A stretch of 64,000 nucleotides of DNA. It comes from Deuterostichococcus epilithicus. Lineage: Eukaryota; Chlorophyta; Trebouxiophyceae; Prasiolales; Stichococcaceae. The translations under genes were made by a program, and so were the position numbers. Below the pieces are notes generated by a model. It made no database searches. It saw nothing but the letters and a program-made list of their open reading frames with translations, and was not told the DNA's origin. Every line of letters begins with the position of its first letter. Within the stretch, counting starts at the first letter, position 1. The stretch lies in contig JAVTLE010000010.1 of assembly GCA_033439295.1 (NCBI GenBank), positions 248,001 to 312,000 of the forward strand. The letters run 5' to 3'. Below are positions 9,001 through 53,891 of the stretch, piece after piece.

Positions 9001-10309
9001 CAGCACCTGCGCCAGCTGCACCTCGGAGCGCTTTTCCGCCGCCGCCAGCGCCTTCTCGTTGGCCGCCAGCGTCTTGCGCTGCTTGGCGACAGCCCTCTTG
9101 CGCACCTCGTGCCGTGCCCGCGCGTTTGCCGCCGCATTCATGCCCAGGTCCACCTCCACCTGTCAATCAAATTTGAGAATTTCAATGTGGGTTGGATTAG
9201 GTCATCAGGAACACAACACAACAACACGATTCCGCCTGACCTGAGGACCCCTGAAACCGTCCCGCTTTGCGCATGGCAGTGCTCCCTGCGCGCAGTGCCC
9301 GCCACCAGCATTGAACCGCCATAGCAATGTCAGCTCATCCCTTGCGGCTGCGCCAGCGCACCGCCTCCCCATCGGCATGCGACCCCTCATCCCAGCGGGG
9401 GCAGACCCACACCAGAGACGGCGTCCCCTGCCACCTCCCACACCAGGTGGGAGTTCCTGAACCCTGAAACCCTCCCACCTTCTGCGGCTGCGGCGGCGCG
9501 CCTGCGCCCTCCTCGTCGCTGTCCTCCTCCTCATCCAGCAGATTGCGGAGCAGCAGCGTCGCGGCATTGCGCTCCAGGTGGAGCGCCCCCACGGTGGCCG
9601 CTACAGGGTTTCCCGCCCGCTTCTCGGCCTCAATCAGCGCGCCTAGCTCGCGCCAGTCGAGGCCGCGGCCCAGCGCCGCGTTCAGCGCGTCGATCGCGGC
9701 GTCGACGACCGTCATGTTGTACTCGATCAGCGCCGCCTGGGGTCGCAGTTGTGAGAACGACAGTCAGAAGCTCGAACGGGGCGTCCATATCGGCTGCGTT
9801 GCATTCGATCAGCCTGCCTGCAGGCACAGAGGATCCGGAATAGATCTAAATTTAATTTGCTTGATGGTGGAAAAAGGTGGAAAAGAAACAGATGAGGGCG
9901 CGGCCGAGCGCCGCATTGAGCGCATCAGTTGCGGCATAGACGACTGCCTATTTGTAGTTGGCCAGCGCCTGTGGTAGGTTGAGAAGTTGATTGGGACATC
10001 CACGACACTCATGCATCACTGAATGAGCGACGTCTGCGGCACCGTCGGACTTCCAGGGTCAGTCTGGAGACCGCGCACACCCCACGCGTAGCACTGGCTG
10101 CACAACACATCATCTACACCCCTGCTCAGGGAGGGGATCACAGAAGGCAGTAGGCGAGAATAGAGGCACCCCGGTTGCCCTGCCATGCACACGGTTCAGA
10201 CTTCAGCCGAGAAGGCTGGGCCGCCAGCAAGCATTACACAGATGGTTGGGTTGCAGCCGTCTTGGTGTTGCAACGCTGGACAACCGGAAGCACTCGACGC
10301 TGCCTGCGG

Positions 10310-10342
<33 letters not shown>

Positions 10343-13300
10343 CCAAAAGTGGTGAGGCAAGGCTGACATCGTGGAGCCCCGGAGCTCGCCCGGCTTCTTG
10401 CCCGGCATCGGGCTCTCGCCCAAAGCACCTCTGCACTCTGTATGTGGTCGTTGATGTGGAGGTTGCGGTTTGGGGTTTAGGGTTTAGGGTTCGATGATCA
10501 CCTGGTCCTCCTCGGCGTCAGCTTCCTGCCCCAGGGCCTCCGCACGCTGTGCCTGGTCGATGCGGACCTTCTCCAGCTTCGACAGCACCTGCTTCGTTGC
10601 TGCTTGCGTCTGCACCTCCGCCCGCTGCCCCTCCACCTGGGTTTGCACGGCAGGAGGCGATGAGCGGTCCACTCTTTACGTGAAAATAGGTTGGTTGCCG
10701 CCGCCGTCTGCACCTGCCCACGCTGCCCCTCCACCTGGGGTTGCACGGCAGGAGGCGATGAGCAGCGCACTGTTGGAGTGTCTTTCTGCGGTTGCCGCCT
10801 GCCTCTGCACCTGTGCACATTGCCCCTCCATGTGGACTGCGCAATGGTGGTGTGACGTGCAGCTTAACAGAGCATCCATGACCATCGCTCCCAGCCCAGG
10901 CTGTCTGGCCAACACAGGTGCTCAAAACGACGCTCCCGTGCCGCATCGCGAGCGGTGCTGTGTGATGCAGCGCGCTCTCAGTGCATGCTTACTCGCTGCA
11001 GCAGCGGGAGCCAGGGGCGGGGCCCCCACATGCGGCCCGGTCACCGCACCTTTGCGAAGAACTCGTCCAGCGCTGCGTCAAAGGTGTCGAACCTGCGGCT
11101 GGGCTGCGCCGCGTGCTGCGCCAGCGGCAGCGCCTCGAACTCGTCATACACTAAACCCTCCTCGTCCGCATCCGGGGCCACACTTGGCGTCGCAGCGGGA
11201 TCACCGGCGGCCGCCGCAGCCGCCGCGGCCTCGGCTGCTGCAGCACGCTTCTTACGGCTGTTGCCTGTGATGCGCGGAGAGTGGGTCACGTCAGCTGTTA
11301 TGGTCGAGAATCTGGCTGAAAGCGGGGTGTGACACCTTGGCACGACACCGACTCGCAGCAGCGCCCCTCCTGGCTGCAACAATGCTTGCACCAGAGAATC
11401 TTCAGCATTGAGGCATCCTGTGCATCCAGGGACCGCGCGCGGAAGGAGCGCCGTTCATTGCACGAGCGCTCTGGCTGAGCTGCACCCGGCTTGCTGAGTA
11501 TGATGTAGCCCGCCGGCGGCGAATTGGCGCAGCCCGCCAGCCACGCCTCATACCTCTGCACCGTGCCCAGCAGGCGCGCAGTGTCTTCCTCTGTGAGCTG
11601 CGCGTCTGCCGCCTGCAATGGCGAAACGCATGCCGTCCTTAGCACTGGGTGTGCCGCCGATGACACAGTAGAGTCGCAACTTAGACACATGGTTCAGCAG
11701 TGGGCGAGTCGCCCGTGCTCTGTCGCCTGCAGGTGTCGCTTTGGAGCAGAGGAGCTGCAGGCAGAAGGATACAGCAGCTTGCAGCTTTCTGTTCCTCTGC
11801 AGGTTGCTGTAAATCCGCCTGCAATTCCTTTGCTCCGCTCTCAGCAGCAGCACCAATAATCATTCATTCAACATTGTTGTTGCTGTTTGCAAGTCTAGTT
11901 GGCACAATAGGACAATATTCTGCCAGAAGACTTGTTGGACGTCTGTCATGTACGTTCAACCCTTTGAGAACGGCCAGCTAAGTCCGAGCTTGGACATACC
12001 GTACATACAAACATGATGTTCAACTTGCCGGTTTGCGGGTTTCCGGCTGCGCAATTGGATGTGACCTAGGAAAGAAGCAACGTGGCAATGAAGCATTTCT
12101 GTGAGTACAGAAAATGCAAGAGGCGCAGTGAAAGCAAACCTTCTGCACCGGCTGCAGGCCGGCGGTCAGCAGGCAGTGGTCCGCGATGTGCGGTCCGTAC
12201 AACAGCACACTCGCAAGCACGCCTGCACACAGCGGCAGTAGATCGAATTATGCAGTGCGCAACCAGTGCAGGTTGTCAGCACTGTGTCGACACGCCTTCC
12301 CTCGACGATGCGACACTGTGCTGCTTCTGTGTGTGCAGGCACATCATGTATGTGAAGGAGCCCGGCGCTGCGCTCAGCAGCTGCATGTGCTGCCGCTAGT
12401 GGAGTCGAGTAGCTTCGGGTCATGACAGGCGTGCGCATGTGACACGCCTGCCATCAGGCTGCTACCGGGTGCGCTCCGGTGCTGCTACTGCAGGGGTGAC
12501 AACCTGATGCGGCAGGCTGGCCATGCCAGCACAGCCGCCTGGTCGTGAAGTGCCCGTCGGACGTGGCGGACGGCACTGCTGCCAGTCAGCGCCTTAGCGC
12601 ATACGCAGCGCATTTGCCCTCGTGGTGCACATGTGAAGTCTTGCGGGACCGGAGCACGGTTGGTTCCCGACAACACATCGCGCATCGCTGCCGGCATCCA
12701 CATCTGCCACGAGAGCCAGCGCGCACCCCGCAGGGTGGCCTTGTCGTCCGCCGCCGACAGTGCCGCCGCCCACCCGTCGGCCGTCACCGGCTGCGCCAGC
12801 CGGATGGAGTGCAGCGGGTAGGGGTGCCGCGGCATCGTGGCCAGCCCGCGCGCGTCGTCGCGGTGCGAGCGCAGCAGCGTGAGCACCTCGTATCGCCCGT
12901 CCGTCAGGATGACGTTGCCCTGTGGCAGAAGCACAAAGCGGCTGAGGCAGTGGCCACCAGCCGATCTGCCCGGTGGCCACCGGCCGGTCTGGCACGCTCA
13001 GTGCTGTGCCTCAAGCTTCCTGTGATCCAGGTGCAGCCAGGAGCGGGCGCGTCACCCCGCCCTCCAGCCTCCAGCCCGTTGCAGTGCTGTGCAGCTTCCA
13101 TCCAAAGCTGCCTCGCAACATAGCCAAAAGCAAATCAGGAGTTCCGGCTTTCATCGCGTGTCAACCAAGCCTCAACATCACCCGGCTGCAGAGATGCAGC
13201 GTGGCAAGTCGCTGATGGGCGATCTAGCTCCTGGACCATCAAACGATTATCTCAGATGAACAGACATGAAGCTCGAATTTGTCACATAAAGCCATCTTGC

Positions 13301-14415: not shown

Positions 14416-15126
14416 GGTGTCCTGCCTCTCAGAAATGCCTTCGGGTGAAGGTATCTCACATCAGCGGCTCGGCGAGCAGCAGTGGTCTGCTTGTCTGCAG
14501 CGTTCAGAGATCGTGAATTGCATCCGTTCAATACAAGTATGGGCATCACGCGCTTGTTGTTTGCCGAGTTGCACCAGAAACCGAGATATGTATGTCAGCA
14601 GCTTCCACAGCGTCCAGCTGCCACAGCTCTCAAACAGCGTCGGTTCTTTGTGCACAATGAGCATTGTCACTGAGCAACATCGTGCTTAGACATGGCTTAG
14701 GCCGCCCACTCTGGTTTGTGCGGCGCTGCGCACCCCGGTGCAGACAAATTTTGATTCAGGCACTCCTGTTCCGTTGGAAGCTGCAGCTTCACATTCACAA
14801 ACTGCGCAGCCACGCACTGTACAACGAAACGAGCCCGAGCTGGCTTGCAACAGCGGTCCTTCCTGCACTGATTGTGTTTGGGTCTGAATCTTTAAATTCA
14901 CCTGCCAGGCGTGGACGCCAGAGCTAGCGGCGTCCAGACATTTTTACACCAACAGCACAGCACACGGCCGCAGCGCCAGGAGCGCGCAGGCCAGCATCTC
15001 GCAGCTTATAAAGTCATCGGCTCACAGTAGAGAGCGGCTCACCCAGGAAAGCCGAGCCGTTCTGCAGCGGAGGCGCCTGAGGACGCTCAAAAGGCCCCTC
15101 GCGACAGGGAGCCAGCAGGCGCTGCC
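14416..15126. promoter_or_regulatory. Divergent promoter region between NEMF and PRP31
   Basis: 711 bases separate the two start codons, which point away from each other, so both promoters must lie here. A TATA-like TTATAAA is at 15006-15012 on the + strand, about 115 bases before the PRP31 ATG. No comparable element was found for NEMF. No exon was seen inside. Confidence 0.6.
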
Positions 15127-18100
15127 ATGGCGACGCTGGCGGAGAGCTTCATGGCAGACCTGGCAGACCTGTCGGACGACTCGGCGGGGTCGGAAGATGA
15201 GGCGGCGCCCATCGTCGATGGCGAGGACCTGCTGGTAAACGCTGCGGCTTTGTTGTTTTTCTTTAACCCATGTCGTCAGAGCCTCCGGCAGCCATGCACG
15301 TATCTCCTTCCTCGAGACCTCGTGCAGCAGAGGCGCTGCCAGTCCCCAGCAGCCATTTCGGCGCAGTATGGCAGGCTAGCCCTGGGCTTGTCTCGGGGCA
15401 CACTACCTCAGACCGAGGCAAGGCAGAGCAGTAGTGCTGCAGGGCCGACGCTGCATGTCAAGTGCCTTGACTCTCAGGGCATGGACCTGTGCGCTGGTGC
15501 AGATGCCGGATGCGCAGCGAGGTGCCGGAGCCGCAGCACCAACAAGCGGCAACCTGCAGGCTGTGGCAAAGCTGACCAGCAGCAACCGCTACACCGACAT
15601 CATGGCCCAGGTGCGGCTGTGGCCTCATCGTCTTCAAGTTGCTGGTGCTGACTTTCAGGATTTCCGCACCCGCAGCCGGTGGCTCAATCTCGGCGTTGAC
15701 TGCTATTCCGGGGCAGCGAGTTGTTCTCGACGGCCAAACCTGACCAAGGTTGCGAGTTTGTCGACGCCAGCCAGACACGAGGGGGTGAAACTTCCTGCTT
15801 CAGGTGCGTGCGGCACTGGCAGAGAACGAGCAGCCGGACCAGCCGGCGGCATGGGCGGGCAGCTCCGAGGACGACCCCACCTACAAGTGCGTTTCATTTG
15901 AGTTTGCATGATCACGAACCCTGACGCGAAAGCGGGCATGATTTGGCGCTCTGGACGGTATGTGTGACCGTTGACTGACGGAGCTGGCTTCGCCGCGATT
16001 GGCGATACAGCCGCGGGCCAGGGCCCACCCGGTCCGATGGTGTGTCTGCATCGTTGCAGGCATGGCCTGTTGCAAGGTCCAAGTGATCGCCGGCTGCCCC
16101 TGCCCCTGCCCTGCTGCCGCACATGCGCCCATGACCCTCGCAGTAGGCAGCGCAGCAAAGTGCGCTCCAGCTCCCGACCGGCCCCCCGACTGCTGCGCTG
16201 CCCCGCAGGCTGCTGGTGGACTGCAACCAGCTGGCGGTGGACATCGACTCGGAGCTGTCCCTCGTGCACAACTGGGTGAGCTCTATTCCTCCGCGTCCTG
16301 CCCTGCGGCGCCGGCACTTCCGCTGCGTGTCTCTGCCTGAGCTCGCTGTTCAGCTTTGCCGTTTCCTTGTCTTTCTCTTCCCTTTGACTTTTCGTAGTTC
16401 CTATCTTCTCACTTCGAGTTGCCTTCCCTCATGCAAGGTGCGGGACCACTACCGGGTGCGCTTCCCGGAGCTGGAGTCGCTGGTGCACCACCCCGTCGAC
16501 TACGCACGCGTTGTGGCTGCCATAGGCAACGAGTCCGACATCACCAACGTGGACCTGGACGGCGTGCTGCCGAGCGCCACGATCATGGTGGTGTCGGTCA
16601 CGGCGTCGACAACCGCCGGGCAGCCGCTGCCGCAGGCGGAACTGCAGCAGGTGCAGTCCTGTCTGTGCCCTGAACGTTCTGTCTAACTGTGACAAAGTTC
16701 TGCCCGGCGCTGATGATCCTGGTCGTCTCAGACGCGGCGAGCACGACTGCAGGGTGGCCGCTGCCGCGGCCGGAGCGGCAGCAGGTGATTTTGTTTTGTC
16801 GGAGTACCGTCTGAGGTCGTTGGCGGTGACTGAATGCTGGCGGGCTGTGACCGCGCAGGCATACCGACCTTTGTAGCCCTGTAAGGGGCCTGTGATCTCA
16901 ACAGAACTTAGTCACCCCATGTGCTCTTCTGCAGCTCCGGTGTCGGCAGGCTGCGACGTCGTGCTGGTGCACCCTCGCCAGCTGCAAATGTCTTGCAATT
17001 CAGTATACAACACGCACCGTTTACCCCCATGATGCTAGCCAACATGTTTCCCTTGCACGACGCAGGTGCTGGCGGGCTGCGATATGGCGCTGGCGCTCGA
17101 CGCCGATCGCGCCGACATCCTGACGCTGGTGCAGACCAAGATGGGCCGCATTGCGCCCAACCTGTCCGCCGTCGTCGGCACCGCCATCGCGGCGCAGCTC
17201 ATGGGCGTCGCGGGCGGCCTCGCGGCACTATCCCAGATGCCCGCCTGCAACATCCAGGTGTGCCGTAAACCCTAAACCCTAGCGCACACTCTTCCCTCTC
17301 TTCCTGTGCCCCCACCGCTCCGTCTCCTCCTGTCCTACCTTCCTCTCCACTCCCCTCCGGCGCGCCCCCCTGCAATGGGTTTTTCCCGAAGGTCCTAATG
17401 CTGCCTGCTTGCGATGAGCGGCGACGCGTGTGCGCATCTGCATGGCACCACAGGTCGTTTGCAGCCCCAGGGATCTGGGCGCTTGCCTGCCGCACCTTTG
17501 GACGAGCCATTCGGCCGTGCATCTGGCCTGTTGCCGCGATACATGGCTTGAGGGGACTCTGGAGCTTGGGCTGAAAATCCCGGCATCGCTGTCCGGCTGC
17601 GCAGGTGCTGGGCGCCAAGCGGAAGAACCTGGCGGGCTTCTCTTCCACCGCAGCCCAGCCGCACCAAGGGTGAGACTGCTTCTTGCACTGCACGGAACGG
17701 TACTGCACAGAATAATACTCAGGTGGGAGCCACATGCCACATTGGTTCAGCAGCTCGCTTGCCTTCCGGCTGCAATCCGAGCCCGCGACGACCCCTGCCG
17801 TCGCGGTGACAACATCAGTCGTCCCGGGCCGGCGTGGCCGCGATCTGCTTGCGTAATAGGACAGCAGGCGCGACCCCTCCTCCGCCGCGTGCGACTCCCG
17901 GCCACCGACTGGACGCTGTCACCGCAACCTTCGCAGATGAGATAAATGGTTGCAGGTTCATCTCGGCGTGCGACCTGGTGCTGAACGTGCCGCCGGCGCT
18001 GCGGCCCCAGGCGGCGCGCATAATCGGCGGCAAGACGGCGCTGCTCGCGCGCATCGACGCCGCCGGCGGCGACCCCTCCGGCGTCAGGGGCAACGAGATG

Positions 18101-29300: not shown

Positions 29301-32300
29301 CTCAACCGCCGGCGCGCAAGCTCTCGGCACGCACCTTGATGGCGCCGAACAGCAGCAGGTGCTCCCGCCCCGTGAGCTCGCGCCAGAGGATGTCGAACTG
29401 GGGGCAGACGCCCATGCGGGAGCGGATGCGCTGCATGCCGCCGGGCGCCGACAATGCCTCGCCAAACACCAGCGCGTCGCCACCTGGCGGATGCGAGGCA
29501 AGGTTCACACACTCAGCCACCCTGGAGTATGGTGTGACAGGCGACCTGAGCTGCAGTGCGTTCCGCCGAGGGCCGACAGCATACCCTGAACCCCGCATGG
29601 CGCCCCGCCAAACATTAGGGCGTTGCCGCGTGCAGTCGAACAGGAGTATTTCGTGAGCTCGAGGGGAGTTCAAGAAAGCACCTTTGCATCGCTGGCTCAT
29701 GTCTGGCACATTGAGAAAACAACATCGCAGGTTCGGATCAGAGGCTGTTGCGGCGGCTGTTGACCAGTACCGTGGGAAGGGACGCCGGTTTGCAGAGATG
29801 CACAGCGATTTATCCTGAAGCGCACCCGACGCTGGCAGCACGCCGGTGAGGCAGTTGATGGTGGTCGTCTTGCCTGCGCCATTGGGCCCCTGCAACGACA
29901 GCACATGAACAGGTTGTGAGCCGCGGCATTGACAGACATGCGGCAAAGCCTGACCTCGTACTTTCGCTCAAGCGCAGTCGAGTTCACAGGTGGAGCCTTC
30001 CTTGTGAAAATGCATGTGACCTGTTGGGAGGCTGTGGCCTTGCAGACAGTTGGGCCCGGGCAGAAGCGCGCACTCCGCGACGGGGTTCGGACGCTTGAGC
30101 GCGGCTGCCCGGCAATACCAGACTTTCATGTAGTAAACAAATTTGCTGCTGGACACAGGACAGCAGGTTCGGGCGCCAAGGTGCTGTGATGGCAAACCTC
30201 AACAGTAGACGCACCAGGAGGCAGAACAGCTGGCCGCGCTGAATGCGGAACCAGGGGCCCTTGAGCGCCCAGAATCGCCGCGCGTCCTGCGCCTTGCGCT
30301 TGCCGCACCACCGCCACGGCTTCAGGAACCTGCGCAAACCATTTTGAGGGGTGAGCTGCCGCAAAGCCATTCAAGGATTGAGCAGCGGCCTTTCGTCTGA
30401 TTCCGCCGATTCACCGCTGCTACACCGCACAGTCAGCGGGCAAGCCAGCCATCCCAGCACAGCGCAGCAGCGGCACCCAGCCTGAACGGATCCGAGCACC
30501 TGGAGCTGCAGATTGAGAGCAGAGAGGCCCTCCTCTGGTCTGCACACGACCATGTGACGCCCTGCCAGGTGCTTCGAGGGTTCAGACCGGGTGGCGGGGC
30601 GTCCCGCAAAGAGGCCTACACCCCAAGACAAAGGGGCGCCCAAACCCCAGAACTAAGAGGCGCTCACCGCGTCCAGCTGCCGCCAAAGACCTTCTGCAGC
30701 CCGAAGATCTCGACTGCGCCCGCAGCCAAGCCCCGAAGCTGCGCCTCCTCACCTGCCGCGCCCGCCAGCGCCCTGCGGCCCACACATACACCCTTGTACC
30801 TTGCACGAGTGCTCCACGATCGCGGGGGCCGGATTTCGGGGCTCAAGCCGTGAGGCGGACCACTTTGGTCAGCAGCTGCCGCCGGCAGACTCCTGCAGCG
30901 CCGCCGCGCTGGAGCCGGTGCTCGGCGGCGTGCTGCACAGGCGCAGGCAGACCATCACAGCAAAGGCATGACTGAACAGGTGCGAGGCGGGTGAGCCTCC
31001 TGGCCCCGCCTGTGAATCAGGCTACTGCTGCTAAGGGCTCTCCCGCTGCACAACAGGTCAATGGAAACTGTGCAAGTTTGGTGCGTGCCAGGCGAGCTCT
31101 CAGGATGGGGCGAGGGCACTTGTGATGCAAGACGGGGGACGAGGCAGGCGGCGCACCCGGCTCTGCCGGTACGGTGCTGCGCCAGCGCCTTCACTTCGTC
31201 CGCCTCCGCCACAACGTCGGGGTCCAGCGCCTCGCCGTCAAAGGGGCAGGCGCCGGCGCCCGCCAGCGGCGGCCGCAGCCGCTGCTGGCCCCTGTGCGGC
31301 AGCGCGCACAGCAGCGTCGCTTGCATGGTCCTTCACACGGCAGACAAGCCGCATGCATGGGCATAGCTGCCGCAGTCGCGCAAGCACAAGCTGCTCCCGC
31401 CTCAGCACAGCCGCACAGCCACCACGTTGCATGTCAGCCTCACATGGTGGTAGTCACGGTGGCGCGGTGGCGGAAGTTGGCGCGGCCGCCGAGGCCCCAG
31501 TAGCTGGGCAGCAGGAAGTACCAGGGCCTCTGGCGCACGCCATTCTCGTTGGCCAGCACATTGTCGAGCCACACAGCCAGCAGCATGTAGACCAGCCACT
31601 GTTGCAGACAGACAATAGTCTGCTGACGACCAGTCTCTCAACCATGCTGCAGAAGCGGTGTGGGCAAAACTAGGTCGCATTGCAAGTTGGGCTGTAGGTC
31701 GAGGTCTGATAATGGTCAGGTGCTGGCAATGGCACAGTCACATCATACAGCACAACAGATGTGGCCCTCCGCCCGACCAGATCGACGCTGGGCGGGTGCA
31801 TCAAGACACAGCGCTTCCCCCGACATGTTGGAGCCAGCAACACGCTGTTTCTGGGGCCAGCCGGCAGCCAATACGAAGAGCGAGGGGCGCAGCACCGCGC
31901 TTGTGAGCAGCATGCGACCGGGAATGCGCACCTCCGCGGTGAGGATGACGAAGATGGTGCCAAGGGGCAGCACGCAGTCGTAGTTGACGTACACATTCGG
32001 GTCGACCGGCTGCAGCTGCTGCTGGGCGAAGTCCAGGTTCTTGCAGTAGCTGCGCAGGTTGCCAGAGTTTGTCGTGAAGTGCACACGGACGACTCATTCG
32101 AGTGCGGCAGTACAGACAGTGCATCGTGGTGTGTCATGTCTGAGCGATAGCCGCCGCGACCTCCGCAGGCAGCCGTGCGGCATCGCACCTGTAGCGCTGC
32201 CCCCATTGCAGGCCAGGGCTGGTGCCTGTGGAGGCGAGCCCCAGGTCGTTGAAACCCTTGGACAGCATCGTCCAGGGTAGCAGGGCGAAGATGATGCCGA

Positions 32301-35300: not shown

Positions 35301-36213
35301 CGCGCTCGGGCCTGCAGGGAAGTCAAAGATCGGCATTTGCGCAATGAGCCATCTGGTAGGTATCAGGCGTCACGTAATTTTCCAATTGATTGATGACAGG
35401 TTCTCCGGAAATTCGGGGTTTGATATTGAGGTAAAGCCGCAAATCCCACAAGCAGCATGAATGCTTGCCCACCTGGTCGCCACATCTGGCAGGTGCATGG
35501 CATATGAGACGGTGCTCGCGCATGCTGCTGCTGCATCGTGCTCAGAGCAGGAATGGGACAGCAATGGAGCAGCGAAACGGCAGCTGTGCGCCAGATCTGC
35601 GCACTTTGGATTGGGCACGCTGCGGTTCGGGTTGAACGCATCGTTGCCGCTCGTGAGCGCCTCATTGACCACCCAGATCAGGGCGATGAACAGGAAGGGG
35701 GCGATGAGGACGCGCGCTGCGGTTGCCTGCCAGTTGCGGCTCGCCACCCGCACTGTGCACACACACGACTCAGCTTCAGGTGGTGCTGTCACGTGGCCGG
35801 CAGGTCCCTGGTGCAGCGAAGCGAGCCCACGGCGGGTCTCCGACCCGGCTTCAGGTGGTGCTGTCACGCGGCCGGCAGGTCCCTGATGCAGCGAAGCGAG
35901 CCCACGGCGGGTCGCACACTCGCATGCTCGTGTGTGCCGCGCCAGCAATCAGGCATATGTGCCCACAGACTGCGCTGCTGTGCTGATGCGGTCGCTTGAC
36001 TGGAGAAATCAGAGCACGATGCAAGCATGAAGTAGGCATGCATGCAGGGTGGGAGTCGAGTTCATGAGCAGTCATACAGCACAATGCCTCACCGTTTTTG
36101 ACCAGCAGCGCGGCATACTGCTGCCCGAAGCGGCGGTGCCAGCCGTAGGTCCTGAGCTGCGGCCGCACTGCCTCGCTGCCGACCGTCGCGGCTTCGATAC
36201 TAGCTTGCTTCAT
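26385..36213 (-). CDS. Half-size ABCA-type ABC transporter (first of a divergent pair)
   Basis: Membrane transporter with an ABC2-type transmembrane domain followed by one ATPase domain, probably moving lipids. Exons: 36213-36093, 35752-35605, 35311-35209, 34926-34738, 34457-34290, 33954-33877, 33590-33480, 33135-33028, 32791-32687, 32358-32189, 32049-31932, 31598-31444, 31291-31157, 30772-30668, 30329-30215, 29889-29826, 29483-29335, 29025-28887, 28640-28507, 28293-28192, 27945-27797, 27450-27261, 27023-26859 (1007 aa to here). Walker [11 protein letters not shown] near residue 644, signature YSGGM near 745, Walker [14 protein letters not shown] near 765, switch His in LTTHSMEE. N-terminal membrane entry segment near 55-70 and helices in 260-500. 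Introns 8 and 9 are GC-AG with GCGCGC donors. The C-terminus is unresolved: a candidate last exon is 26488-26385, but its phase fits only if exon 23 uses the alternative donor GTTGCC six bases... further in; treat the end as uncertain. Confidence 0.9.
27025..27052. repeat. Degenerate telomere-like repeat abutting an ABCA acceptor
   Basis: Degenerate TTTAGGG units touching the acceptor of ABCA exon 23 (starts 27023). In the gene's sense the polypyrimidine tract and CCCAG acceptor are themselves built from CCCTGAA/CCCAAA units. Confidence 0.6.
33962..33992. repeat. Degenerate telomere-like repeat abutting ABCA exon 6 acceptor
   Basis: Three AGGGTTCAG/AGGGTCA-type units beginning eight bases from exon 6 (starts 33954) of the - strand ABCA gene. 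In sense they form the C-rich tract before the acceptor. Confidence 0.6.
35773..35913. repeat. 75-base tandem duplication in ABCA intron 1
   Basis: GCTTCAGGTGGTGCTGTCAC recurs at 35773 and 35848. The two copies (about 1.9 units) differ at only a few positions, so the duplication is recent. It starts 21 bases from exon 2 of the - strand ABCA gene (exon begins 35752) and lies wholly in the intron. Confidence 0.95.
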
Positions 36214-40100: not shown

Positions 40101-43100
40101 CCAACGGGCCTCCCTCCGTGCAGCGCCTCAACCAGGTGCGCATTCTGTCCGATCTGCTGCCTGGTTGGCCCCAAAATCTTCCGACAGAATCCACCGGCAA
40201 CATGCCTCAGGGGACCGCAGCTGGGCGGGAGCCTCCTCGGCTCTGGAACAGGCTGTTGACGGCGCGGCCCCACACAACTTTGTGCAACTGCAGGGGCTGA
40301 ATATGGCGGTGAATGCGTTCCTCAAGTTCTCTCTGGGCGACGCATTCGCGGCGCCGCTGCTGGGCATCAGCGAGATGCCCAAGCCGGAGACGCGCCTCAC
40401 GCTCGACTTCTCGTCTCTACTGGGTGCGGTGGAACATCGGCCTGCCTTTGTGTTTTCCCATTGGAACCTTGCTCCTGCATTTGGCCCAGTCCGCTTGGAA
40501 GGACGGCTTTGCTTCGTGATACGCCACCCCAGCGCCTATGCACTGCCGGCCCGGACTCGGCGGCCACACCCGGCAACGTTGAAGTTACTCTTGAAAATGC
40601 TGTAGTCTGCCACAGTGTGCCAGTTGTTTGGCCAGAGATAGCTGGCTCTCGTTTCGTCAAAGTAGAGAGGCGACTGAGTGGCCACCTGTTGCAGGGCCCA
40701 TATTCTTCAACTGGCTGACGCAGCTGCTGCTGCCCCTCATGCTCGTCAACCTGGTTTACGAGAAGCAGCAAGGGTGCGCGCCTGTCTTCTGCTCGTTAAT
40801 GGATGCAGTGTTTGATGCTATTGGGAAGTTTTAGCCAGACACACACGTTGCTTGGGCTGCTCATGCAGACACAAGGCGTGAGGGCATGATTGGCCAGTGC
40901 CAGTGGATAGCAGAGCCTCCTGTTTAGAAAGTGCTTATCCGTTCTGGGTTTTGCACGTTACACAGGCTGCGCATCATGATGAAGATGCATGGCCTGGGCG
41001 ACGGTGCCTACTTCAGTGTCCAGTACCTGTGGTTCCTGCTGCTGTACTGCGCATACATGGCGGTGCTCATCATCATCGCCTCCGCCGTCAATATCGGCTT
41101 CTTCCGCAAGAACTCTTACGCTCTCCAAATCGTGGGCCGTCTTCCCCTTGCGAAGTGCTGGGAACATGCCAGAACGACCTGTTGTGGATGCCTTCAGTTG
41201 CATTGGCCTGACACATCTCCAGTCTACTCGGCGTCCGTGCAGCTGACTGCAGGCGGCTCGTCATGCAATGCCAGTCGTAACCGATTGCTTGTGGCACAGG
41301 TGTTCTACTTCGTATGGGGCAACTGCCTCGTTGCTTTCGGATTCGTGCTCTCGACCTTCTTTCGAGTCGTTAAAACTGCTGTCGTGTTCGGCTATCTCTA
41401 CACCATCGGCTCCGGTGCGTTTCTGCCCCAGCATTGAATTGTTCTGACTCCATCACCTCAAGCTGTCATTTGGCCTCCGAACCCGGGAGGCCTGACAGAG
41501 TGCGCATAACCTCTGAGGGGTGCATCAGAAGTGCGTCAGGATCATGGGTGCCAAATTTGCGCCCAGCGGGCAGCGGCGGCAACGCCGCAGCCAAGGATGT
41601 GCTCTGCATTGGCAAGCCTAGGTTCTGCCTGGTGGTTTCGGTAGCTGACGGTCGTCATGCGATGGACTGCCTGCAGGATTGCTGGGATACTTGTTGTTCC
41701 AGCAGCTCATCGAGCGCGGCTACAGTTGGGTGTGGGTGCTTGAGCTCATACCCTCATTCGCGCTGTACCGCGGGCTGTACGAATTCGCACAGTATGCCTT
41801 CAAGGCCGGCTACGGGGTGCGAGTCAATCCATGTTGGCGCCGCCATTCCGTGCATGATGTGATCACCGCATGCTGTGTCCCTCCACTGCGACCACACGAC
41901 TGCACTACACAACCCCACATCCCCGACTCACGTTCGAGACAGCGTTTGCAACAAGTACAGATGGCTTCGCAGCTGAGTATCTGCTTTGGAACACACTCGT
42001 GCAGATCTCTCACTGCATTCATTGCTGTTTCTGCTGCAGAACGGGGACGGCCTGAGCTTCGGCAACATCAACGACGGGTACAATGGTGCGCTTGGGCGGC
42101 TGCCAACAGCTGCTGTACAAGCTGCCTCTCTGTCTGCTTTGATGCGGCGTTGGTGTCAACCTCGCAAGTCTCCCTCGCACCTCGCAGCCAGCCAGTCACC
42201 TGCCTTTCGGGCCATTGGTGCCATCTGTGCGCTGGTCAGCCAATCACCTGCCCTTCGGCCCTTCGAAAAACATGCTGTGTATTGGTGCACCTGCAGGCAT
42301 GAGTGTGGCGCTGGGCATCATGGCCGTGGAGTGGGCACTCTTCCTGGTGCTGGCCTGGTACCTGGAGCAGGTTCTTGCATCAGGTAAGAACCAGAAATCG
42401 ATCCTCAACTAGGAGTAGAACGGTCACGGCACACAAATCTGCGCCATGAGCGACCGCGCTTCCTGGTGTTCGCACAGACTCAGCGAGGGTGGACCACAGC
42501 AGACTGAAGCTTGATTCGTGTCTGCAACGCGACCATGGCTGCACACTGGGGTTGGAATCCCTGTGAAGCTGATTGCATGGTGACCACAGGCACGGGCGTG
42601 CGGCGCAGCCCGCTGTTCTTCCTGGACAGTGCCAAGAAGCGGCGCCGGCGCCGCAGCGGCACAGTTGTCGACGCGGCGCCGCCGAGGTCCCGAAAGTCCA
42701 TGGACGGCGACCTCGGGGTGGGTGTTGTGGATGCTCCTCCGCAGAACATAGGAGCCTTCTTGAAGATCACACAAGTAGTGCTCCATTGGCGCGGAGTACT
42801 TATAGCTCGTCACTTGTGCCTGTCGTGATTTCATGAAATGCTAGAAGGGTGTGCAGCTTTTGAAACCTGGCATGCGCCTGCGCCGTGAAGGTGCCACTGG
42901 AGGGAGACGATGTGGCAGACGAGCGGTTGCGTGTCGCCTCGATGCCAACAGACGGCTCCGGCGACTCCATTGTCGTGCGCGGCTTGCGCAAGATCTACCC
43001 GGCACAGGTGCGCGTGTGCCGGATGTATAATATTATCAGCATTGGCTGTGGTGCATGGCTGCCACTGCCCCCAGCATTGCACAACCCTTTCAGAACGCCG

Positions 43101-46100
43101 GAACGAGCAGCTTCTTCGGCTTGCTGACAGCCTGCTCGCGACAGCGACATGGGCTGCCGCCGCATGGCTCTCTCCGCGTCAGACACTTCTGTGTAGTATG
43201 AGATTGCAGACGATGCTCTCCTTTTCTGCATGTCTGACGCCTGCAACGATGCGCAGGATGGCAACCCGCCCAAGGTCGCAGTCAAGGGCCTCGACCTAGG
43301 CATTCGCCGCGGCGAGGTGTTTGGTGAGCACCCTGCATCTGCTGCCCTGCATCGCTCAAGCACTGCGCAGCTGCTTATTCGACAGCAATGTGCGCAGTGC
43401 TGTGCATGGCGCGCTTGCGCTTTGCATATGCCATTCGCTGCATGCCAGAATGATGAAGGCAGCACGAATCGAAAGGCGCCTCATGGAAAGCTCAACCCTG
43501 CTGCATAGGCCTGCTCGGCCCCAATGGCGCCGGCAAGACGTCGGCCATCCACATGATGATCGGCTTCCTGGAACCCACAGCAGGTTTGTTGTCGGAACAT
43601 TGTGCCTGTGGCAATCTCAGTGCATGTTGAGGGTGCTGGTTGGACCCTTGGGCATCTCTTGCGGCGGCGGCGGACGAAGACCATCACAGCCACGAGGCGC
43701 GATCTGGGCTCGGAGGGGGGATTTATCACACGTGTCCGCCTGGACTTCGGCCTTGTGATGCAGACCTAAAACCCAATCGCTGCTGCATCATGCAGGCACT
43801 GCATCCGTTGAGGGCCTAGACATCCGCGAGGACATGTCGGCGGTGTACGCGCTCATGGGCGTCTGCCCACAGGTGTGCATCCGTCCACTCTGGCGGTACT
43901 TGGCTGTTCAGGCCCTGCCCCTGCTCCGCTCAGTATGTCGCACTGGTGTGTCTGCAGACTGCTTGCATCAAGCACTGCAGCCTGCGATTGCACTCCACAT
44001 AGAGTGGGTGTGCAATAGACCTCCCGCGCGCATCTAGGACCCATTCTGCATGCACAATGCAAATCTGCATGTCCACTCCGTGCTGGTCCTCAGCAGACTC
44101 CTTGATGTCGACTTCCTCGTGCTGAGACCTGCCTGATGACCTGTGGTTCTTTACTAGCAGCCATGCGCATGCGCCTGACCTTCAAACTCTGCCCCGGGCT
44201 CGCCGGGCTACCTGTAGCCACATCAGTCCACCGACCTGTGCTGCACCTCTGAACATCTCTGCTGTCCTCCCCCTGCAGCACGACCTGCTGTGGGAGCAGC
44301 TGACGCCGGTGGAGCACCTCAACTTCTATGGCCGCCTCAAAGGCCTCAAGGTGCGGTTTTGAGGGGTCAGGGGGTCAGGCCCTGGCTGTCGTGTTCGTGC
44401 GTCCGACTTTCTCACTTCCTTGCATGGGGACGTGGTGCTGGATTGGGTCCTGGCAGCTGCGCAAGTCTATGACAGCTCGGACCAGCCCGAATGTCCAAAA
44501 ATTGGCCCAGTTCGCCAAGATCAGCCCATCATGCACGAACGCGCCCCTGAGGGTCCAACCCTCAAGTGTCAGTGGCTTTGCCACCGGTTTCGAGCCCTAA
44601 AGCAAACAGGTCCACGTCGCTGAGGCATTTGCGCATGCTGCCGCAGGGGAAGCAGCTGGCGGCGGCGGTCGAAGCAGGCCTGCGCGCAGTCAACCTGTGG
44701 AACGTGCGCCGCAAGCAGGTCGGCCAGTTCTCAGGCGGCATGAAGCGGCGGCTGTCCGTCGCCGTCAGCTTTGTCGGCGACCCGGCGGTGGTGTACCTCG
44801 ACGAGCCAAGCACGGTGCGTTGGGAAAAGACCACAGATCGACTTTGAAGGAATCTGCTGGTGGTGGGTTTAGGGTGCTGCGTGCCCGAGAGCTCAGGCGC
44901 CAATTGCGCCGCCCATCGCCAGCCTTCCATTCTCACCGCTGCCTCCAGCACCAGCCAGGCACGAGCGACGAGGCGTCGCAGCTCACATCACGAGTGGCAG
45001 ACAGTGACCTGGGTTGTCGCGATTATTGCGAATGCTGAGTTGAGCGCCTCTGATGCGGTCAGGCCCTGTGGCACAGCCCCCATGGCACTGCAGCCTGCTG
45101 TCGTACACTCCATCTCCTCGAGCAACAGCATCGGCACCCTGCAGGGGCTGGACCCGGCATCGCGGCGCAACCTGTGGGAGGTGGTCAAGCAGTCGCGGTC
45201 GGGGCGCGGCATCGTGCTGACGACGCACTCCATGGAGGAGGTGCGTGTCGGGCTGCTGAAATCCGACCGGGTGCTGGCAAGTATTGACTAACGTCAAAAT
45301 AATGGGCGAGCTCGCCCAGCGCAAACGGAGCAGCACGAGCACAGCCGAAAGCCTGCATGAGTGCTCATCAGCGCCAGAGTGCATATCGGTTCAGCGCCTG
45401 GTGTAACAGTGCCCGGAATTGCTTTTTCAGGTACTCGACTCGGCCTCAAAACCATAACCCTTCCAGATGAGGCTCTGTACAGCACAGGAACAGGAACAGC
45501 TGCGAGCTGCAAGCTACTGCGTCTCTGACCAGCCAGGTTTATTGCACCGCAGGCGGAGGTGCTCTGCGACCGGCTGGGCATCTTTGTGGACGGACAGCTG
45601 GTGTGCATCGGCGCACCCAAGGAAATCACCGCGCGCTACGGCGGCTACCTGGTGAGAAAACAGATAATCCATGCTGCAAACTCGTAAACTCCGCGGTCTC
45701 TGGAGGGCGCATGTTTACACCATGCGCTGTAGCGGCCAGCCGGTGCACTTCTGACTGGAACGGCTGTGCGCTGGAGGCGTACTCGATGCTTGGGTGGCAC
45801 CTTGGCTGAGACGGCCCGGCATGCGGAGATGCGTGTAATGCTTTGCCCGAATCGTTTGCATGGCCGGCGCTAGGTGCAGTGCTTCCAGACACGGCTGCTC
45901 AGCGCAGACGTTTTGCAGCCCGCCGGGCAAACACGGTGGATGCATGGTCCTCAGCCTGCTTGGCAAAGCATTGGTCCCTTGCCCAAACACCAGCTGCCCC
46001 TCAACCTCTGCAGCATCTTCTGCGCACAGGTGTTCACCATCACGACGGCGCACACGGATGTCGACCTTGAAGCGGCGGATGCGCTGGTGCGGTTGCTGTC

Positions 46101-46742: not shown

Positions 46743-47183
46743 TTGGCTCAGCACCCCTCGTTGTTTCTGTGATATTACACAGCTGTGCGAGCCCTGAAAC
46801 TGCGGCACCACACTGCTCGGGTCGCCAGGTGTGGCGGCTGCAAACACCCCACATGCGGGCAGAATTAAGGAAGGGATGGGTGTGGTGGAAAATGACCATG
46901 CAAACATCAGAACTGCCACAAACGTTCAGGCTAGGTTTGTATATTGTCCTGTTCCGGTTCACTATCATTGAGTTCAACGGCAGTTAGAAACTTCAACCCA
47001 AAGTGAAATTACAAAGTCAGAAAAGCGAAAAAGCGCACATGTCGCACAATGGGTACAACTCGTACAGATCCGCAGACCTCCTCGCGGATCCGCAGACATT
47101 CGAACGTCCTCACAGTTGACATAGGGAAGGATTTGTGCTCAATTATCTCGTTTCGGTTCTTAGCCAGAAGATTCAGAGCAAAT
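46743..47183. promoter_or_regulatory. Tandem intergenic region upstream of the unrecognised secreted gene
   Basis: 441 bases holding the 3' flank of the second ABCA gene and the promoter of the next gene. It is less GC-rich than its surroundings, particularly from about 46900 on. No exon was seen. Confidence 0.4.
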
Positions 47184-50100: not shown

Positions 50101-50584
50101 CCAACTGCTGAGCGGAAAGTGTATGAAAGTAGGCCAAGAAGCCGAGCCAGAACACTTGCGTGTGTTGCGTTGCTGCAGATCAAGCGCATTCGGTCCAAGC
50201 CCCAGCCGCGCGTCACAAAGGTCGGCGCAATCCCGGGCAAGGCGGGCGAGCGCTTCTACAATTATGGCATGGCCACCCTGCCGGGCTCCAGCAACCCCTT
50301 TTACGCGATTGCTGCAAAGCCGGGACCAGGCGACGACAAGGCAAGTCTCCCATCATGATGGAAGCATCAAACGCTGCGGATAAAAGTTGCGTGAGACTGG
50401 CCATAGTGCGGCACAGATGCACAACAGACGGTCACCAATGCGGCTGCCCAGCTTGACTGATCAACCTCGTCAATTTTTGCAGGTCGTTGCCTTCAAAAAG
50501 TCGGGGCTGGCCAACAAGGGCCGTTTTGCTTTCCAGATCCAGCCCGTCACCGCACGCACCTTCATCATAGCCGTCGCGCCTTGA
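47184..50584 (+). CDS. Unrecognised secreted or membrane-anchored protein, possibly beta-propeller-like
   Basis: Family not recognised. Eight exons, 372 aa, in phase: 47184-47315, 48221-48418, 48627-48696, 48888-49032, 49405-49558, 49766-49921, 50179-50340, 50483-50584 (TGA). The ATG at 47184 opens a textbook signal peptide (MLRRLLVVVASVLAVASTP, with ASA near residue 25), so the product probably enters the secretory pathway. Later segments repeat a pattern of a strand ending in L/F-x-R/K at an exon start (STYVLNLRFNPKTRKL; TFHLRRVKTGSKNLL; IKRIRSKPQPRVTKV; VVAFKKSGL), as in propeller blades. Conserved-looking cysteines: CTGGC, DVC, GEC, ALC. The intron 50341-50482 is GC-AG with the classical AAG|GCAAGT donor. 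A TGTAA lies at 50791-50795, about 207 bases past the stop. The 905-base first intron has an exon-like stretch near 48000-48120. Function unknown. Confidence 0.75.
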
Positions 50585-51455
50585 GGGCGGACATTTTGGA
50601 AGCCGAAATTGGTGCAGTGGCATTTGGCGGCATCCGCCTGTGATCACGTCAATGCAGCCGTGCTGGGCCCGCTCTGCAAGCTATGCAGATGTCGAGAGTC
50701 TGGAGTGTCTCACATGCCACATATCTGTGTAGGGCTGGACATATTTGTTGTTTCGGTGCTCACGCAGCGTGCCAGCCTACCCCTTGGGATTGTAAACAGA
50801 CCATGACGTTGTGTGTGGGGGGTGTGTTCACATTAGTAGTGCGTCAAATTCTCTTGTGTTTCAAGAGTACCAATGGACTTGGTAATGCAGCTGGACCTCC
50901 CATCAGTAAATGCAAAATGTGTTGAACTATTTGATGCGTAGACGTTCAAAGCTCAGCACAGCAATGGCTCTGTCAGGAAACCTGCGCTTTTCAAAAGTAC
51001 TCTACAGATACAGCGTCTCTCAGAACTTGCACAATAATTCCCTGCTCCTCACTTGCTACACTTTACAGCTCGACGCATCCATCTCACAACTGAAGGTACA
51101 CGCACGATCCAGGCATGTCTGCCTGAGGTACAAATGAAGCAGTAGGCAGCAGTCGTTCCCAGTCATATTACGCACATAGGATGGGCGCAAAGTTGCGCCA
51201 TGCTTCACCAAGCAGAGCTGCCGTCTCAGGCAGGGCGATGGCATGCAGACAGCCGACAGCCGCAATCATCTGCGGCGATGGCCGTCGACGATAACCACGC
51301 ACCCGACCCTGGTGGCAGGTCATTGGCGGTAAATATTCGACTGGCCCATTACCCTTCCACGTTCGGCCCACCCCGCTGGACGTTTGGCGCCTGATGTGGT
51401 GCTTTGGAGCCAGGTGGTACTGGCAGCTGCACCGGCAGGCAGGCTCGGCCTCCGC
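50585..51455. other. Convergent 3' intergenic region
   Basis: Between the secreted protein gene (+) and the dehydrogenase (-). It holds the TGTAA at 50791-50795 (+) and a - strand TGTAA at 51063-51067. No coding exon or RNA gene was recognised. Confidence 0.4.
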
Positions 51456-53891
51456 TCACCAGCAGTTGGGGCGGCCATCGATGAAGAATCCGCCACTGAG
51501 CTCGGCGCCAGGTTCGTAGGTGATGTTCCAGAATATGGACTCCACACCCTGCTCTGCTGAGCGCGGCGCACTCCCACCGCCCATGTCAGTACGGCACTGC
51601 ACGAGGAATGATGCAATGCGTGTGATCAGACGATGGATGGTGCCAAATTACATCCAGATCGTTGAGTGCCCCCTGCTGCACTGAGCGTGGCTTGCTACCC
51701 CCACCCAGATCTGTGCGGCAGTGTAGTATGTGACTAGAGGACCCACGTAACAAGGGAGGAGGTGCAGCATCAGCAGCGTATGGGCTGTCATACAGGCGCA
51801 TGGCAGAGCAGTGATCGCATGCTCCTCAGCAGCAGCTGATCTGGGTTGCCTCCAGAGTCATAGCAGAGGTGCGGGATGTATCGCAGACCTGTCAGTGCAA
51901 TCTGTCATGACAGAGAGGAGATTTGACCAGATGGTCAATCCAGAGAGGCCAAGGGGGGGTAGCAGAACGCACCCAGCCGGGGGTGACAACGCTGGCAGTG
52001 ATGCCGCGCTGTCGGAGCTGCTCGTTGTGCGCAAGCAGCTGCGTCGCCCGGTTCAGCATTGCCTTTGTAACGCTGCGCAGGCAGGCGACAACACATGCCG
52101 CTTGTAACACTTCCAACTGGCGCGCGGAGCGCGGGCGAGGGTGTTTCGCGATGACTTCCGCCACTGCCAGCAGCGCCAGCCGCATCGTGTGCAAGCCTTG
52201 CACTCGCTCTCACTCACAAGCTGTGCTGTCGTCCCTGACGAAGCCCTGTCGCCGGCGTGACATGCTGGGCTGCTGCAATACACGGTGCCGCCGCCCGGTG
52301 GCACATTTTGGCTGCAGTATCAGCCACAGCATCCCTTGTCGCTCTTCTGGATTTGCACGGGCTCACGTTGTGCAAGTCACCTGTAGGTGGGCACAGGGCC
52401 GGCCGCCTGACGTGAGTCCGACGCGTCAAACGGTAGCCGCCGCAGCTCCTCCAGGGTGTCCGATTCCATGATGCGGTCTCCATAGGCTGTGGACAGGCAG
52501 TGCAGCTGGCCGAGGCCGCTGCTGACGTTCACCACGCGCGCGCCTGCAGGATGGTGGCAGGCAGGCGTCGCATGACGATTCAAGGGCAGGGAGTAGGGGC
52601 TGCGGCAGTGACAGCCTTTCAACGCTGCACCTGGCCATCGGCATGTGTTCTCAGGTCTGGCCATCAGAGGGAAAGCTTGCTTGCAGCATGCACGTGCCTG
52701 TAGCGCATGAAGACAGCATGCAGGATGCCGCATAATTGCACCCTGCCAGGCTCCTGCGGCCGGCCCTGTGGCGGATGTGAATTCCCGGCGCACCTTCCGC
52801 CATGTGCGGGCACAGCTGCTCGACCAGAGATATCGGGCCCTCGAAATTCGTTGCGTAAGCCATGTCCCAGGCTGCCTGGCTCCACTCGTGCAGGTACACC
52901 CCCGCTGCAGCACACAGGCGCGGGTCATGAGCCACAAGCTACAGGCTGCAACCACATGAGCAGCCTGGTGATTCTGGCCGGAACAGCTCCCCTGAACCCT
53001 CTTGTGGGATGGTAGCACAGGCCACGCACAGAAGTCGCGACGACACAGCCCAGGCGACTTTCCGTGGCAGCGGGGCACGCGCCGCCAGCACGAAGCCTGC
53101 ACCCCGCCAGCTCCACACACCGCAACATGGTATCGAACAGTCCAGCGCAGATGGTGCAGCGCACATCCAATAGCCGCACTCCGCTGGTCGTGCGGGATGT
53201 TACAGCTAGATTGGAAATGGGAGGGGGAATGGGAGGGGCTGCCCTGACGGTTCACCGTTATTCACGAGGCACGTGATGCGCTGGTCATAGTCCCGCCGCA
53301 CCGCCGCCACCGCCGCCGTCACGCTGCCGGGATCGGCCACGTCCAGCTCCAGCGGCCGCACTGCATCCTGGCGCCGCGTTTCGGCGGCCACCTGGTGCGC
53401 CGCTTCCGCCGCTGCACAGCATTTAAGGGGTCAAAGAAACATTAAAGCTCAACTTTTTTAACGAAAAAGAAACCTGCAGCCCTCATCCCCATACGCCATC
53501 GACAGTTGTGCTACTTTCGCTCGACCACCTGTTGACTAGGTTATGACTAAGGTCAAGTGGCAAGCCGCTACACCTGTAGGCGCACCTTTCCCATGCGTGC
53601 GGCTTGCGAGCAACACCTGCCGTCCTGAGGAGACAAGCTTCCTGGCGAGGCCCAGGCCCAGGCCCCTGTTGCCACCTGCGCGGCAACAATTCGTTCGGGT
53701 CACAGGTGTAACTCGGATTGAATTTCTGGCAGGTCATCAGCCGCAGCGGTTGTGATCTGATCTGCCGTGTAATCACCCTTGCCACTACATAACTACATTC
53801 CAGTAGTATGTCGATCATACCATTTGGCCAGATCAATATTCTGACCGGCATATGGTTGCTTACCGGTCAGAAGCACCCAGCCCTCCGCCAT
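51456..53891 (-). CDS. Short-chain dehydrogenase/reductase, carbonyl-reductase type
   Basis: NAD(P)H-dependent cytosolic-type reductase; substrate not deducible. Seven exons, 262 aa: 53891-53864, 53675-53586, 53411-53256, 52904-52794, 52543-52381, 52072-51973, 51596-51456 (TGA), all GT-AG and in phase. The 28-base first exon encodes MAEGWVLLTG, completing the nucleotide-binding TGGNRGLG (TGxxxGxG) across intron 1. Then CLVNNAGVY (NNAG), VNVSSG (catalytic Ser), YSVTK (catalytic Tyr-x-x-x-Lys, split by intron 5) and PGWCRTDMGG. About 45 residues separate SSG and YSVTK, the insertion typical of monomeric carbonyl reductase, menthone reductase and salutaridine reductase relatives, rather than classical tetrameric SDRs. 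No targeting peptide is visible. Intron 6 contains a decayed copy of the final exon. Confidence 0.93.
51636..51720 (-). repeat. Decayed copy of the dehydrogenase's last exon inside intron 6
   Basis: On the - strand, 51720 downward aligns with the start of the last exon (51596 downward). It reads CRTDLGGGSKPRSVQQGA against CRTDMGGGSAPRSAEQGV, then diverges. The base pair before it is AC rather than AG, so the acceptor is lost and it should be skipped. Confidence 0.9.

What the first reader, a model, noticed from the sequence alone, without database searches (positions are those of the whole stretch)
9894..51720. General pattern: introns carry decayed copies of adjacent exons ('exon echoes')
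Four separate cases in three unrelated genes within 64 kb, all inside introns, all next to the parent exon. Together with simple tandem duplications of 45-98 bases in at least three other introns, this points to a genome-wide process of short tandem duplication in genes, which could also create new introns when a duplicated AGGT is used as splice sites. I know of no named system matching this exactly.
Basis: partly seen in the sequence, partly recalled or inferred. Interest (0 to 1): 0.78.

Follow-up and report, generated by a model that had tools for sequence, protein, structure and literature searches.

The report
Decayed tandem copies of exon edges
Several introns in this stretch of nuclear DNA hold worn-out copies of the edge of the neighbouring exon, which are best explained as ordinary short tandem duplications that happened to cross a splice site and were tolerated because the extra piece is spliced out.

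Summary
With 131 hand-checked introns, strong intron-to-flanking-exon matches occur in 5 of 262 own pairs, against 0 of 2148 same-gene non-flanking, 1 of 16061 other-gene and 0 of 262 antisense pairs. Direct repeats crowd at short offsets: 11 pairs against 0.04 expected. Two further strong ones are NEMF 10691 and 8256.

Interpretation: no special 'echo' process is needed. Short tandem duplications land anywhere; those crossing one splice junction leave the mRNA unchanged if the outer site stays in use, and the inner copy decays as intron while its conserved parent keeps it recognisable. Uniform placement predicts a 0.42-0.83 junction share; 5 of 9 families are seen. Codon positions differ at a ratio of 2.1, 2 being expected for a neutral copy. 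Against: three echoes keep usable-looking splice sites. Intron birth from duplicated AGGT finds no support in 130 introns. Genome-wide claim untestable: no genome held. New member of a known kind.

The parts
9479..9736 (-). NEMF/Rqc2 (NFACT) exon, parent of echo A
   Evidence: gene model; Pfam NFACT_N and NFACT-R_1; aligned to NEMF of the PDB
9889..9971 (-). echo A: decayed copy of the 5' edge of the exon, offset 235, in-frame stop; an AG acceptor is still there after a 3-base gap and scores above the real one
9986..10039 (-). weaker second copy of the same exon edge, offset 297
   Evidence: score 18, 67% identity
9772..9813 (-). weak third copy of the same exon edge, offset 82
   Evidence: score 16, 69% identity
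10502..10636 (-). NEMF exon, parent of array B
   Evidence: ungapped against NEMF of the PDB across its junction
10691..10774 (-). echo B1: 44 bp of exon edge plus 40 bp of adjacent intron, offset 98; acceptor still as strong as the real one
10790..10835 (-). echo B2: third copy of the same unit, acceptor lost
8094..8196 (-). NEMF exon, parent of echo F
8256..8283 (-). echo F, offset 102, 86% over 28 bp
16438..16650 (+). PRP31 exon, parent of echo C
   Evidence: Pfam Nop and Prp31_C; PRP31 of the PDB
16697..16787 (+). echo C: copy of the 3' edge of the exon with its donor site, one-base frameshift; donor about as strong as the real one
17066..17257 (+). PRP31 exon, possible parent of echoes D1 and D2
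16940..16970 (+). possible echo D1 of the exon 17066-17257, weak
   Evidence: empirical p 0.005 per pair
16834..16855 (+). possible echo D2 of the same exon, very short
51456..51596 (-). SDR (short-chain dehydrogenase) last exon, parent of echo E
51671..51723 (-). echo E: copy of the 5' edge of the exon, offset 124, reading frame kept, acceptor AG changed to AC
29602..29632 (-). weak echo of ABCA exon 29335-29483, offset 146
   Evidence: score 17; empirical p 0.002 for this intron-exon pair
35766..35922 (.). 75-bp tandem duplication wholly inside an intron
6922..7057 (.). intron-only direct repeat, offset 99
58218..58314 (.). intron-only tandem repeat, offset 52
62832..62918 (.). intron-only tandem repeat, period 44
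42189..42261 (.). intron-only tandem repeat, offset 48
   Evidence: score 19
59742..59845 (+). inverted copy of 59090-59194 (part of the first exon of an unnamed gene, its donor site and start of its intron), in intergenic DNA
   Evidence: 78% over 106 columns

Best explanation
The echoes are the intronic leftovers of ordinary short tandem DNA duplications (about 40-235 bp) that happened to cross one splice junction. After such an event the gene has two copies of the junction. If the outer, exon-proximal splice site stays in use, the mRNA is unchanged, the inner copy becomes intron, and it decays without constraint. The parent edge is held by protein-level selection, so exon-derived halves stay recognisable longer than intron-derived halves. 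That makes the pattern look exon-specific although the duplications fall everywhere. Shown here: the excess, its short-range direct orientation, the adjacency to junctions, one array with the intronic half still visible, signs of decay (a stop, a frameshift, some lost acceptors), and the coexistence of intron-only duplications. Inferred: that the older cases were also units crossing the junction, that the outer site was used from the start, and that the mutational source is break repair or replication slippage.
For: Own-exon excess 5/262 vs 0/2148, 1/16061, 0/262, and 4/262 vs 0/2148, 2/16061, 0/262 at the protein level. Direct repeats of score 20 or more at offsets 30-399: 11 pairs vs 0.037 expected; inverted repeats of the same score with gaps 50-399: none (3 palindromes at smaller gaps and two pieces of one inverted copy at 599-681). 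In the strong cases A, B, C and E the match reaches within 2 bp of the splice junction or crosses it; F stops 15 bp short. Array B crosses it, with 35 of 40 intronic bases matching, and echo A keeps an AG at the matching place. The inverted copy at 59742 also runs across a donor site into intron, so it is a DNA-level copy and not a copy of spliced mRNA. Third-position differences 37/106 against 41/213 at first and second positions; corrected ratio 2.11, bootstrap 1.30-3.38, where 2 is expected if only the parent is constrained. Stop in A, frameshift in C; acceptor lost at the homologous place in B2, E, D1 and D2. At most of the amino-acid changes that I compared by eye, PRP31 and NEMF of the PDB agree with the parent. 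Simulated junction share 0.42-0.83, observed 5 of 9 families.
Against: The intronic half of the unit is not detectable in A, C, E or F (p 0.29, 0.45, 0.79, 1.0). The model puts it near the detection limit, but tandem origin is not proved for those four. Three of the five strong echoes keep usable-looking splice sites: the A acceptor (38.9 percentile of real acceptors, the real one 6.9), the B1 acceptor (22.9 against 15.3) and the C donor (47.3 against 38.2). Why the outer site should win is not shown. Without case E the codon ratio is 1.72 (0.99-2.92), which no longer excludes 1. Case E has a stronger third-position bias (9/16 vs 5/34, p 0.005) than a copy neutral from birth should show. Gene models are my own, without transcripts. 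Only one 64-kb window was examined.
Confidence: 0.83

Rival explanations
1. The echoes are, or until recently were, functional alternative exons or alternative exon edges made by exon duplication.
For: SDR echo keeps its frame and 12 of 16 codons encode the parent residue, with third-position bias. Echo A acceptor, echo B1 acceptor and echo C donor score as well as or better than the real sites.
Against: In-frame stop in A, frameshift in C, acceptor lost in B2, E, D1 and D2. The NEMF of the PDB aligns with the parent exons without any insertion at the B junction. Offsets 235, 98, 134 and 124 are not multiples of three (102 is), so use of the inner site alone would mostly shift the frame. Pooled codon ratio of 2.1 fits a neutral copy.
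Confidence: 0.08
2. A dedicated process copies exon pieces into neighbouring introns (RNA-templated repair or exon-derived insertion).
For: In the older cases only the exon half is clearly visible and the match ends near the exon edge.
Against: Array B and the inverted copy at 59742 include intron sequence. Intron-only duplications of similar sizes are about as frequent. Uniform placement plus decay reproduces the mix.
Confidence: 0.04
3. The host introns were themselves born by tandem duplication of an AGGT-containing exon segment, and the echoes are what remains of that birth.
For: In 35 of 130 introns the exon after the acceptor starts with GT, so AG|GT occurs at many acceptors; the mechanism is documented elsewhere (PMC3443670 and PMC2891723, passages read).
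Against: Donor and acceptor surroundings of the same intron are no more alike than those of different introns (p 0.20-0.97). Birth by duplication would give an offset equal to the intron, whereas the offsets of the strong families (98-235) are shorter than their introns (243-765 bp).
Confidence: 0.03
4. Chance similarity from biased codon composition, wrong gene models or an assembly artefact.
For: GC-rich, low-complexity coding stretches give many weak matches, and case D is within that range.
Against: Controls from the same exons and introns give 1 of 16061 at the same level. The exon-to-intron copies of the five strong cases differ by 14-28%, too much for a plain assembly duplicate. Pfam and PDB matches support the parent exons in PRP31 and NEMF, and Pfam the SDR protein.
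Confidence: 0.02

Closest known systems
Tandem exon duplication with unannotated or degenerate exons in introns (Exonize, PMC12343006; PMC9013439)
   Same: Exon-like copies in an intron of the same gene, found by similarity of exon to intron; Exonize has 'intronic' and 'inter-boundary' match classes and speaks of degenerate (pseudo) exons.
   Different: Here only exon edges, not whole exons, are copied, and most copies look dead; the genomes named in what I read are human, fly, worm, yeast and vertebrates.
Intron gain by tandem genomic duplication of AGGT (PMC3443670 passages; PMC2891723 passages; PMC4974935 seen in search listing only)
   Same: Short tandem duplication within genes whose cost is removed by splicing.
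   Different: There the duplication makes a new intron; here it lengthens an existing one and no birth signature is seen.
Short tandem duplications from repair of staggered double-strand breaks (PMC8355091 passages; patch-mediated repair in plants recalled, not read)
   Same: Direct head-to-tail copies of tens of bases.
   Different: Mechanism not tested here; copies are too old to read breakpoints, and several are longer than the overhangs of about 43-54 bases in the passages read.

Membership tests
Tandem exon (edge) duplication with degenerate intronic copy | exon-intron similarity within a gene above a background of unrelated exon-intron pairs | tested here: met
Tandem exon (edge) duplication with degenerate intronic copy | direct orientation and short offset (tandem) | tested here: met
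Tandem exon (edge) duplication with degenerate intronic copy | the duplicated unit includes the adjacent intron (DNA level) | tested here: inconclusive
   met for B, not detectable for A, C, E, F
Tandem exon (edge) duplication with degenerate intronic copy | copy lacks features of a working exon | tested here: inconclusive
   stop in A, frameshift in C, acceptor lost in B2, E, D1, D2; but A and B1 acceptors and C donor remain as strong as the real sites
Intron gain by tandem genomic duplication | the two ends of the same intron resemble each other beyond the splice consensus | tested here: not met
   130 introns, p 0.20-0.97; only young events could be seen
Intron gain by tandem genomic duplication | intron absent from relatives at that position | not testable with these tools
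   no relative found and no genome held
Mutually exclusive alternative exons | both copies spliced into mRNA in alternation | not testable with these tools
   no transcripts
Double-strand-break repair tandem duplication | breakpoint microhomology or fill-in signature in young copies | not tested
   copies too diverged to read breakpoints

The most novel reading that the evidence does not exclude
In this genome, scars of break repair (short tandem duplications and telomere-like inserts) recur next to exon-intron junctions and act as a one-way ratchet: each event that crosses a junction is tolerated by use of the outer splice site, lengthens the intron and adds an exon fossil, so that intron length itself records the breaks that genes suffered. 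The telomere-like motif near splice sites (8 matches at 7 sites against 0.3 expected, all within 41 bases of a splice site) would be the second trace of the same process.
Probability: 0.13. Interest if true: 0.6.

Novelty: new member of a known kind. Interest (0 to 1): 0.33.

Why it matters
Exon edges copied into introns could be used as dated fossils of short duplications, because the parent exon preserves the original. That would give a direct estimate of how often genes suffer such duplications and how much of intron growth they cause. Such fossils also mislead gene predictors: my own gene finder called pieces of echo B1 and echo C as exons.

Tried and rejected
Gene finding: a first run of my gene finder over-predicted tiny exons and was replaced by stricter settings plus hand curation. 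One intron end (PhoD 1957, should be 1956) stayed off by one base in the models used for the counts; it was left out of the 130 introns. Two gene-finder exons of the unnamed gene at 54625-59260 that were in the protein given to Pfam were left out of the counted models.

Mended on checking: I first took the acceptor of echo A as lost, because one search scored the wrong place. One search shows an AG there after a 3-base gap, stronger than the real one. I raised the odds of the alternative-exon rival from 0.06 to 0.08 and lowered the main reading from 0.85 to 0.83 for this.

Relatives: the PRP31 piece found nothing in viral contigs (8 pattern stretches, none confirmed) or genome contigs (59 stretches, none confirmed).

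Rejected: coding-coding paralogue calibration of the codon test, because the ABCA pair is too diverged to serve (ratio 1.4). Rejected: reading longer echo introns (4 of 5 above the 85th percentile, p 0.005) as proof of growth, because long introns also give more room for detection. Set aside: pairing of echo and parent in the RNA as a function, since direct copies do not pair with each other.

Literature: searches. I make no claim that the pattern is unpublished. The rows listed for combinations with green algae (15 of 67 papers) and Trebouxiophyceae (2 papers) showed no title about this pattern.
Full report
What the window is. The window is intron-rich nuclear DNA, 56-66% G+C in 2-kb steps. 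A custom gene finder, Pfam and hand curation gave ten genes with 131 introns, median 257 bases. Names by Pfam: PhoD phosphatase, NEMF/Rqc2 (NFACT domains), PRP31 and a short-chain dehydrogenase (SDR). Two ABCA-like transporters and a CLC-like channel are named from recalled motifs only and were not given to Pfam. The proteins of three unnamed genes gave no Pfam match. I believe it is a green alga (telomere-like TTTAGGG motifs, dense short introns), but no call establishes the species. No whole genome is held for it.

Is the observation there? Yes. Every intron was compared with every exon by best ungapped segment. At normalised score 10, 5 of 262 own-flank pairs pass, 0 of 2148 pairs within the gene but not flanking, 1 of 16061 pairs from other genes, and 0 of 262 own-flank pairs with the intron reverse-complemented (Fisher own vs other 6e-9, own vs antisense 0.03). 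At the protein level, 4 of 262 own pairs pass score 20, against 0 of 2148, 2 of 16061 and 0 of 262. The five are NEMF exon 9479-9736 (A), NEMF exon 10502-10636 (B), NEMF exon 8094-8196 (F), PRP31 exon 16438-16650 (C) and SDR exon 51456-51596 (E). F does not pass at the protein level. Weaker further copies lie at 9986, 9772 and 29602.

Without any annotation, direct repeats of score 20 or more at offsets 30-399 number 11 (9 families), against 0.037 expected from the 3 such pairs at offsets of 2000 or more. At score 16 it is 18 against 1.9. Inverted repeats of score 20 with gaps of 50-399 number 0; there are 3 palindromes at smaller gaps and 2 pieces of one inverted copy at gaps 599-681. So the excess is tandem in kind. 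Of the nine families, five are exon-to-intron (A, B, C, E, F) and four lie wholly in introns (35766, 6922, 58218, 62851); a fifth intronic one (42189) scores 19. Four repeats of score 16 or more lie wholly inside exons, at offsets 12, 15, 30 and 381, all multiples of three.

Anatomy. In A, B, C and E the copied part reaches within 2 bases of the edge of the parent exon or crosses it, and sits on the intron side of that same edge; F ends 15 bases short. In B the 98-bp unit continues across the acceptor for 40 intronic bases, 35 of them identical, and a third copy follows. For A, C, E and F the predicted intronic half is not detectable (p 0.29, 0.45, 0.79, 1.0). A has an in-frame stop and C a one-base shift. 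Acceptors are lost at the homologous place in B2, E, D1 and D2. But three strong echoes keep splice sites that score like real ones: the A acceptor (38.9 percentile against 6.9 for the real one), the B1 acceptor (22.9 against 15.3) and the C donor (47.3 against 38.2); the F acceptor is weak (4.6). This speaks against a simple rule that the inner site dies quickly. PRP31 chains of the PDB (human by recall) carry [13 protein letters not shown] like the parent and unlike echo C, and NEMF (human by recall) shares LIE.N...VD.AI with the parent where echo A differs (compared by eye).

Decay. Pooled over A, B1, C, D1, E and F, mismatches are 20/107, 21/106 and 37/106 at codon positions 1, 2 and 3 (the extra copies A2, B2 and D2 were aligned but left out so that no copy of the same edge counts twice). 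The corrected ratio of third to other positions is 2.11 (1.30-3.38), where 2 is expected if the parent changes only at silent sites and the echo everywhere. Without E it is 1.72 (0.99-2.92). E alone is more biased (9/16 against 5/34, p 0.005) and may have been constrained for a time; its acceptor is now AC. A simulation with uniform placement, constrained parent exons and neutral copies (250 events per class and age) gives a junction-crossing share among detectable families of 0.42, 0.53, 0.81 and 0.83 at 0.1, 0.2, 0.3 and 0.5 changes per site and lineage, and none detectable at 0.8; the share at 0.5 rests on few detections. Observed: 5 of 9 (for the simulation, for the families). It assumes sizes like those observed and fixed rates of my choosing.

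Mechanism. The best reading is therefore plain. Short tandem duplications arise anywhere. Inside introns they are free, and inside exons they survive in multiples of three. Across one junction they are free if the outer splice site is kept, and then they leave a piece of exon in the intron. The exon half outlives the intron half because its partner is conserved. The source of the duplications, break repair or slippage, is not shown. Tandem duplications at staggered breaks are documented in mammalian cells (PMC8355091, passages).

Intron birth. Six comparisons gave p 0.20 to 0.97. There is no sign of recent birth by AGGT duplication; old births could not be seen.

Known kinds. Exonize (PMC12343006; first third of the text and passages read) searches for exon copies in introns, has intronic and inter-boundary match classes and mentions degenerate exons; it reports that more genes had partial, inter-boundary and intronic events than full-exon ones. 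PMC9013439 (passages) cites a 2002 study that found more than 2000 unannotated candidates by similarity to neighbouring exons or DNA adjacent to exons. PMC2891723 and PMC3443670 (passages) treat intron gain by tandem duplication. The present case belongs with tandem exon duplication; what differs slightly is that exon edges rather than whole exons are involved. I make no claim of priority.

Limits. One window, own gene models without transcripts, no relatives, no genome. The genome-wide claim remains open.

Noticed in passing
3312, 6106, 8080, 9460, 10476-10491, 17268, 27043: Telomere-like motif AACCCTRAA occurs 8 times (7 sites) against 0.3 expected. All are intronic and within 41 bases of a splice site, 6 of 7 sites within 20 (noncoding expectation 0.12), in both orientations relative to the gene (cut-offs chosen after seeing the data; 5 of the 7 sites are in one gene, NEMF). 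Looser patterns also hit at 51-100 bases. Short telomeric inserts are known as break-repair scars in mammals (PMC7215372, passages), where the intronic share fits random insertion.
   Followed up: partly
59090-59194 and 59742-59845: Inverted copy, 78% over 106 columns, of part of the first exon, the donor site and the start of the intron of an unnamed gene, lying about 600 bp upstream in intergenic DNA.
   Followed up: partly
introns beginning at 1956, 13300 (-), 33027 (-), 32686 (-), 38350, 50341: Six of 131 introns look like GC-AG introns by my hand curation on reading-frame or recalled homology grounds; the gene finder itself allowed only GT, so there may be more.
   Followed up: no
5321-5418: Imperfect palindrome of about 100 bases (70% over 103 columns) inside a NEMF intron.
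   Followed up: no
28502-28641 and 44776-45245: Two ABCA-like transporter genes on opposite strands share exons of what looks like the ABC domain (77-90% identity over two pieces, about 16 kb apart).
   Followed up: no
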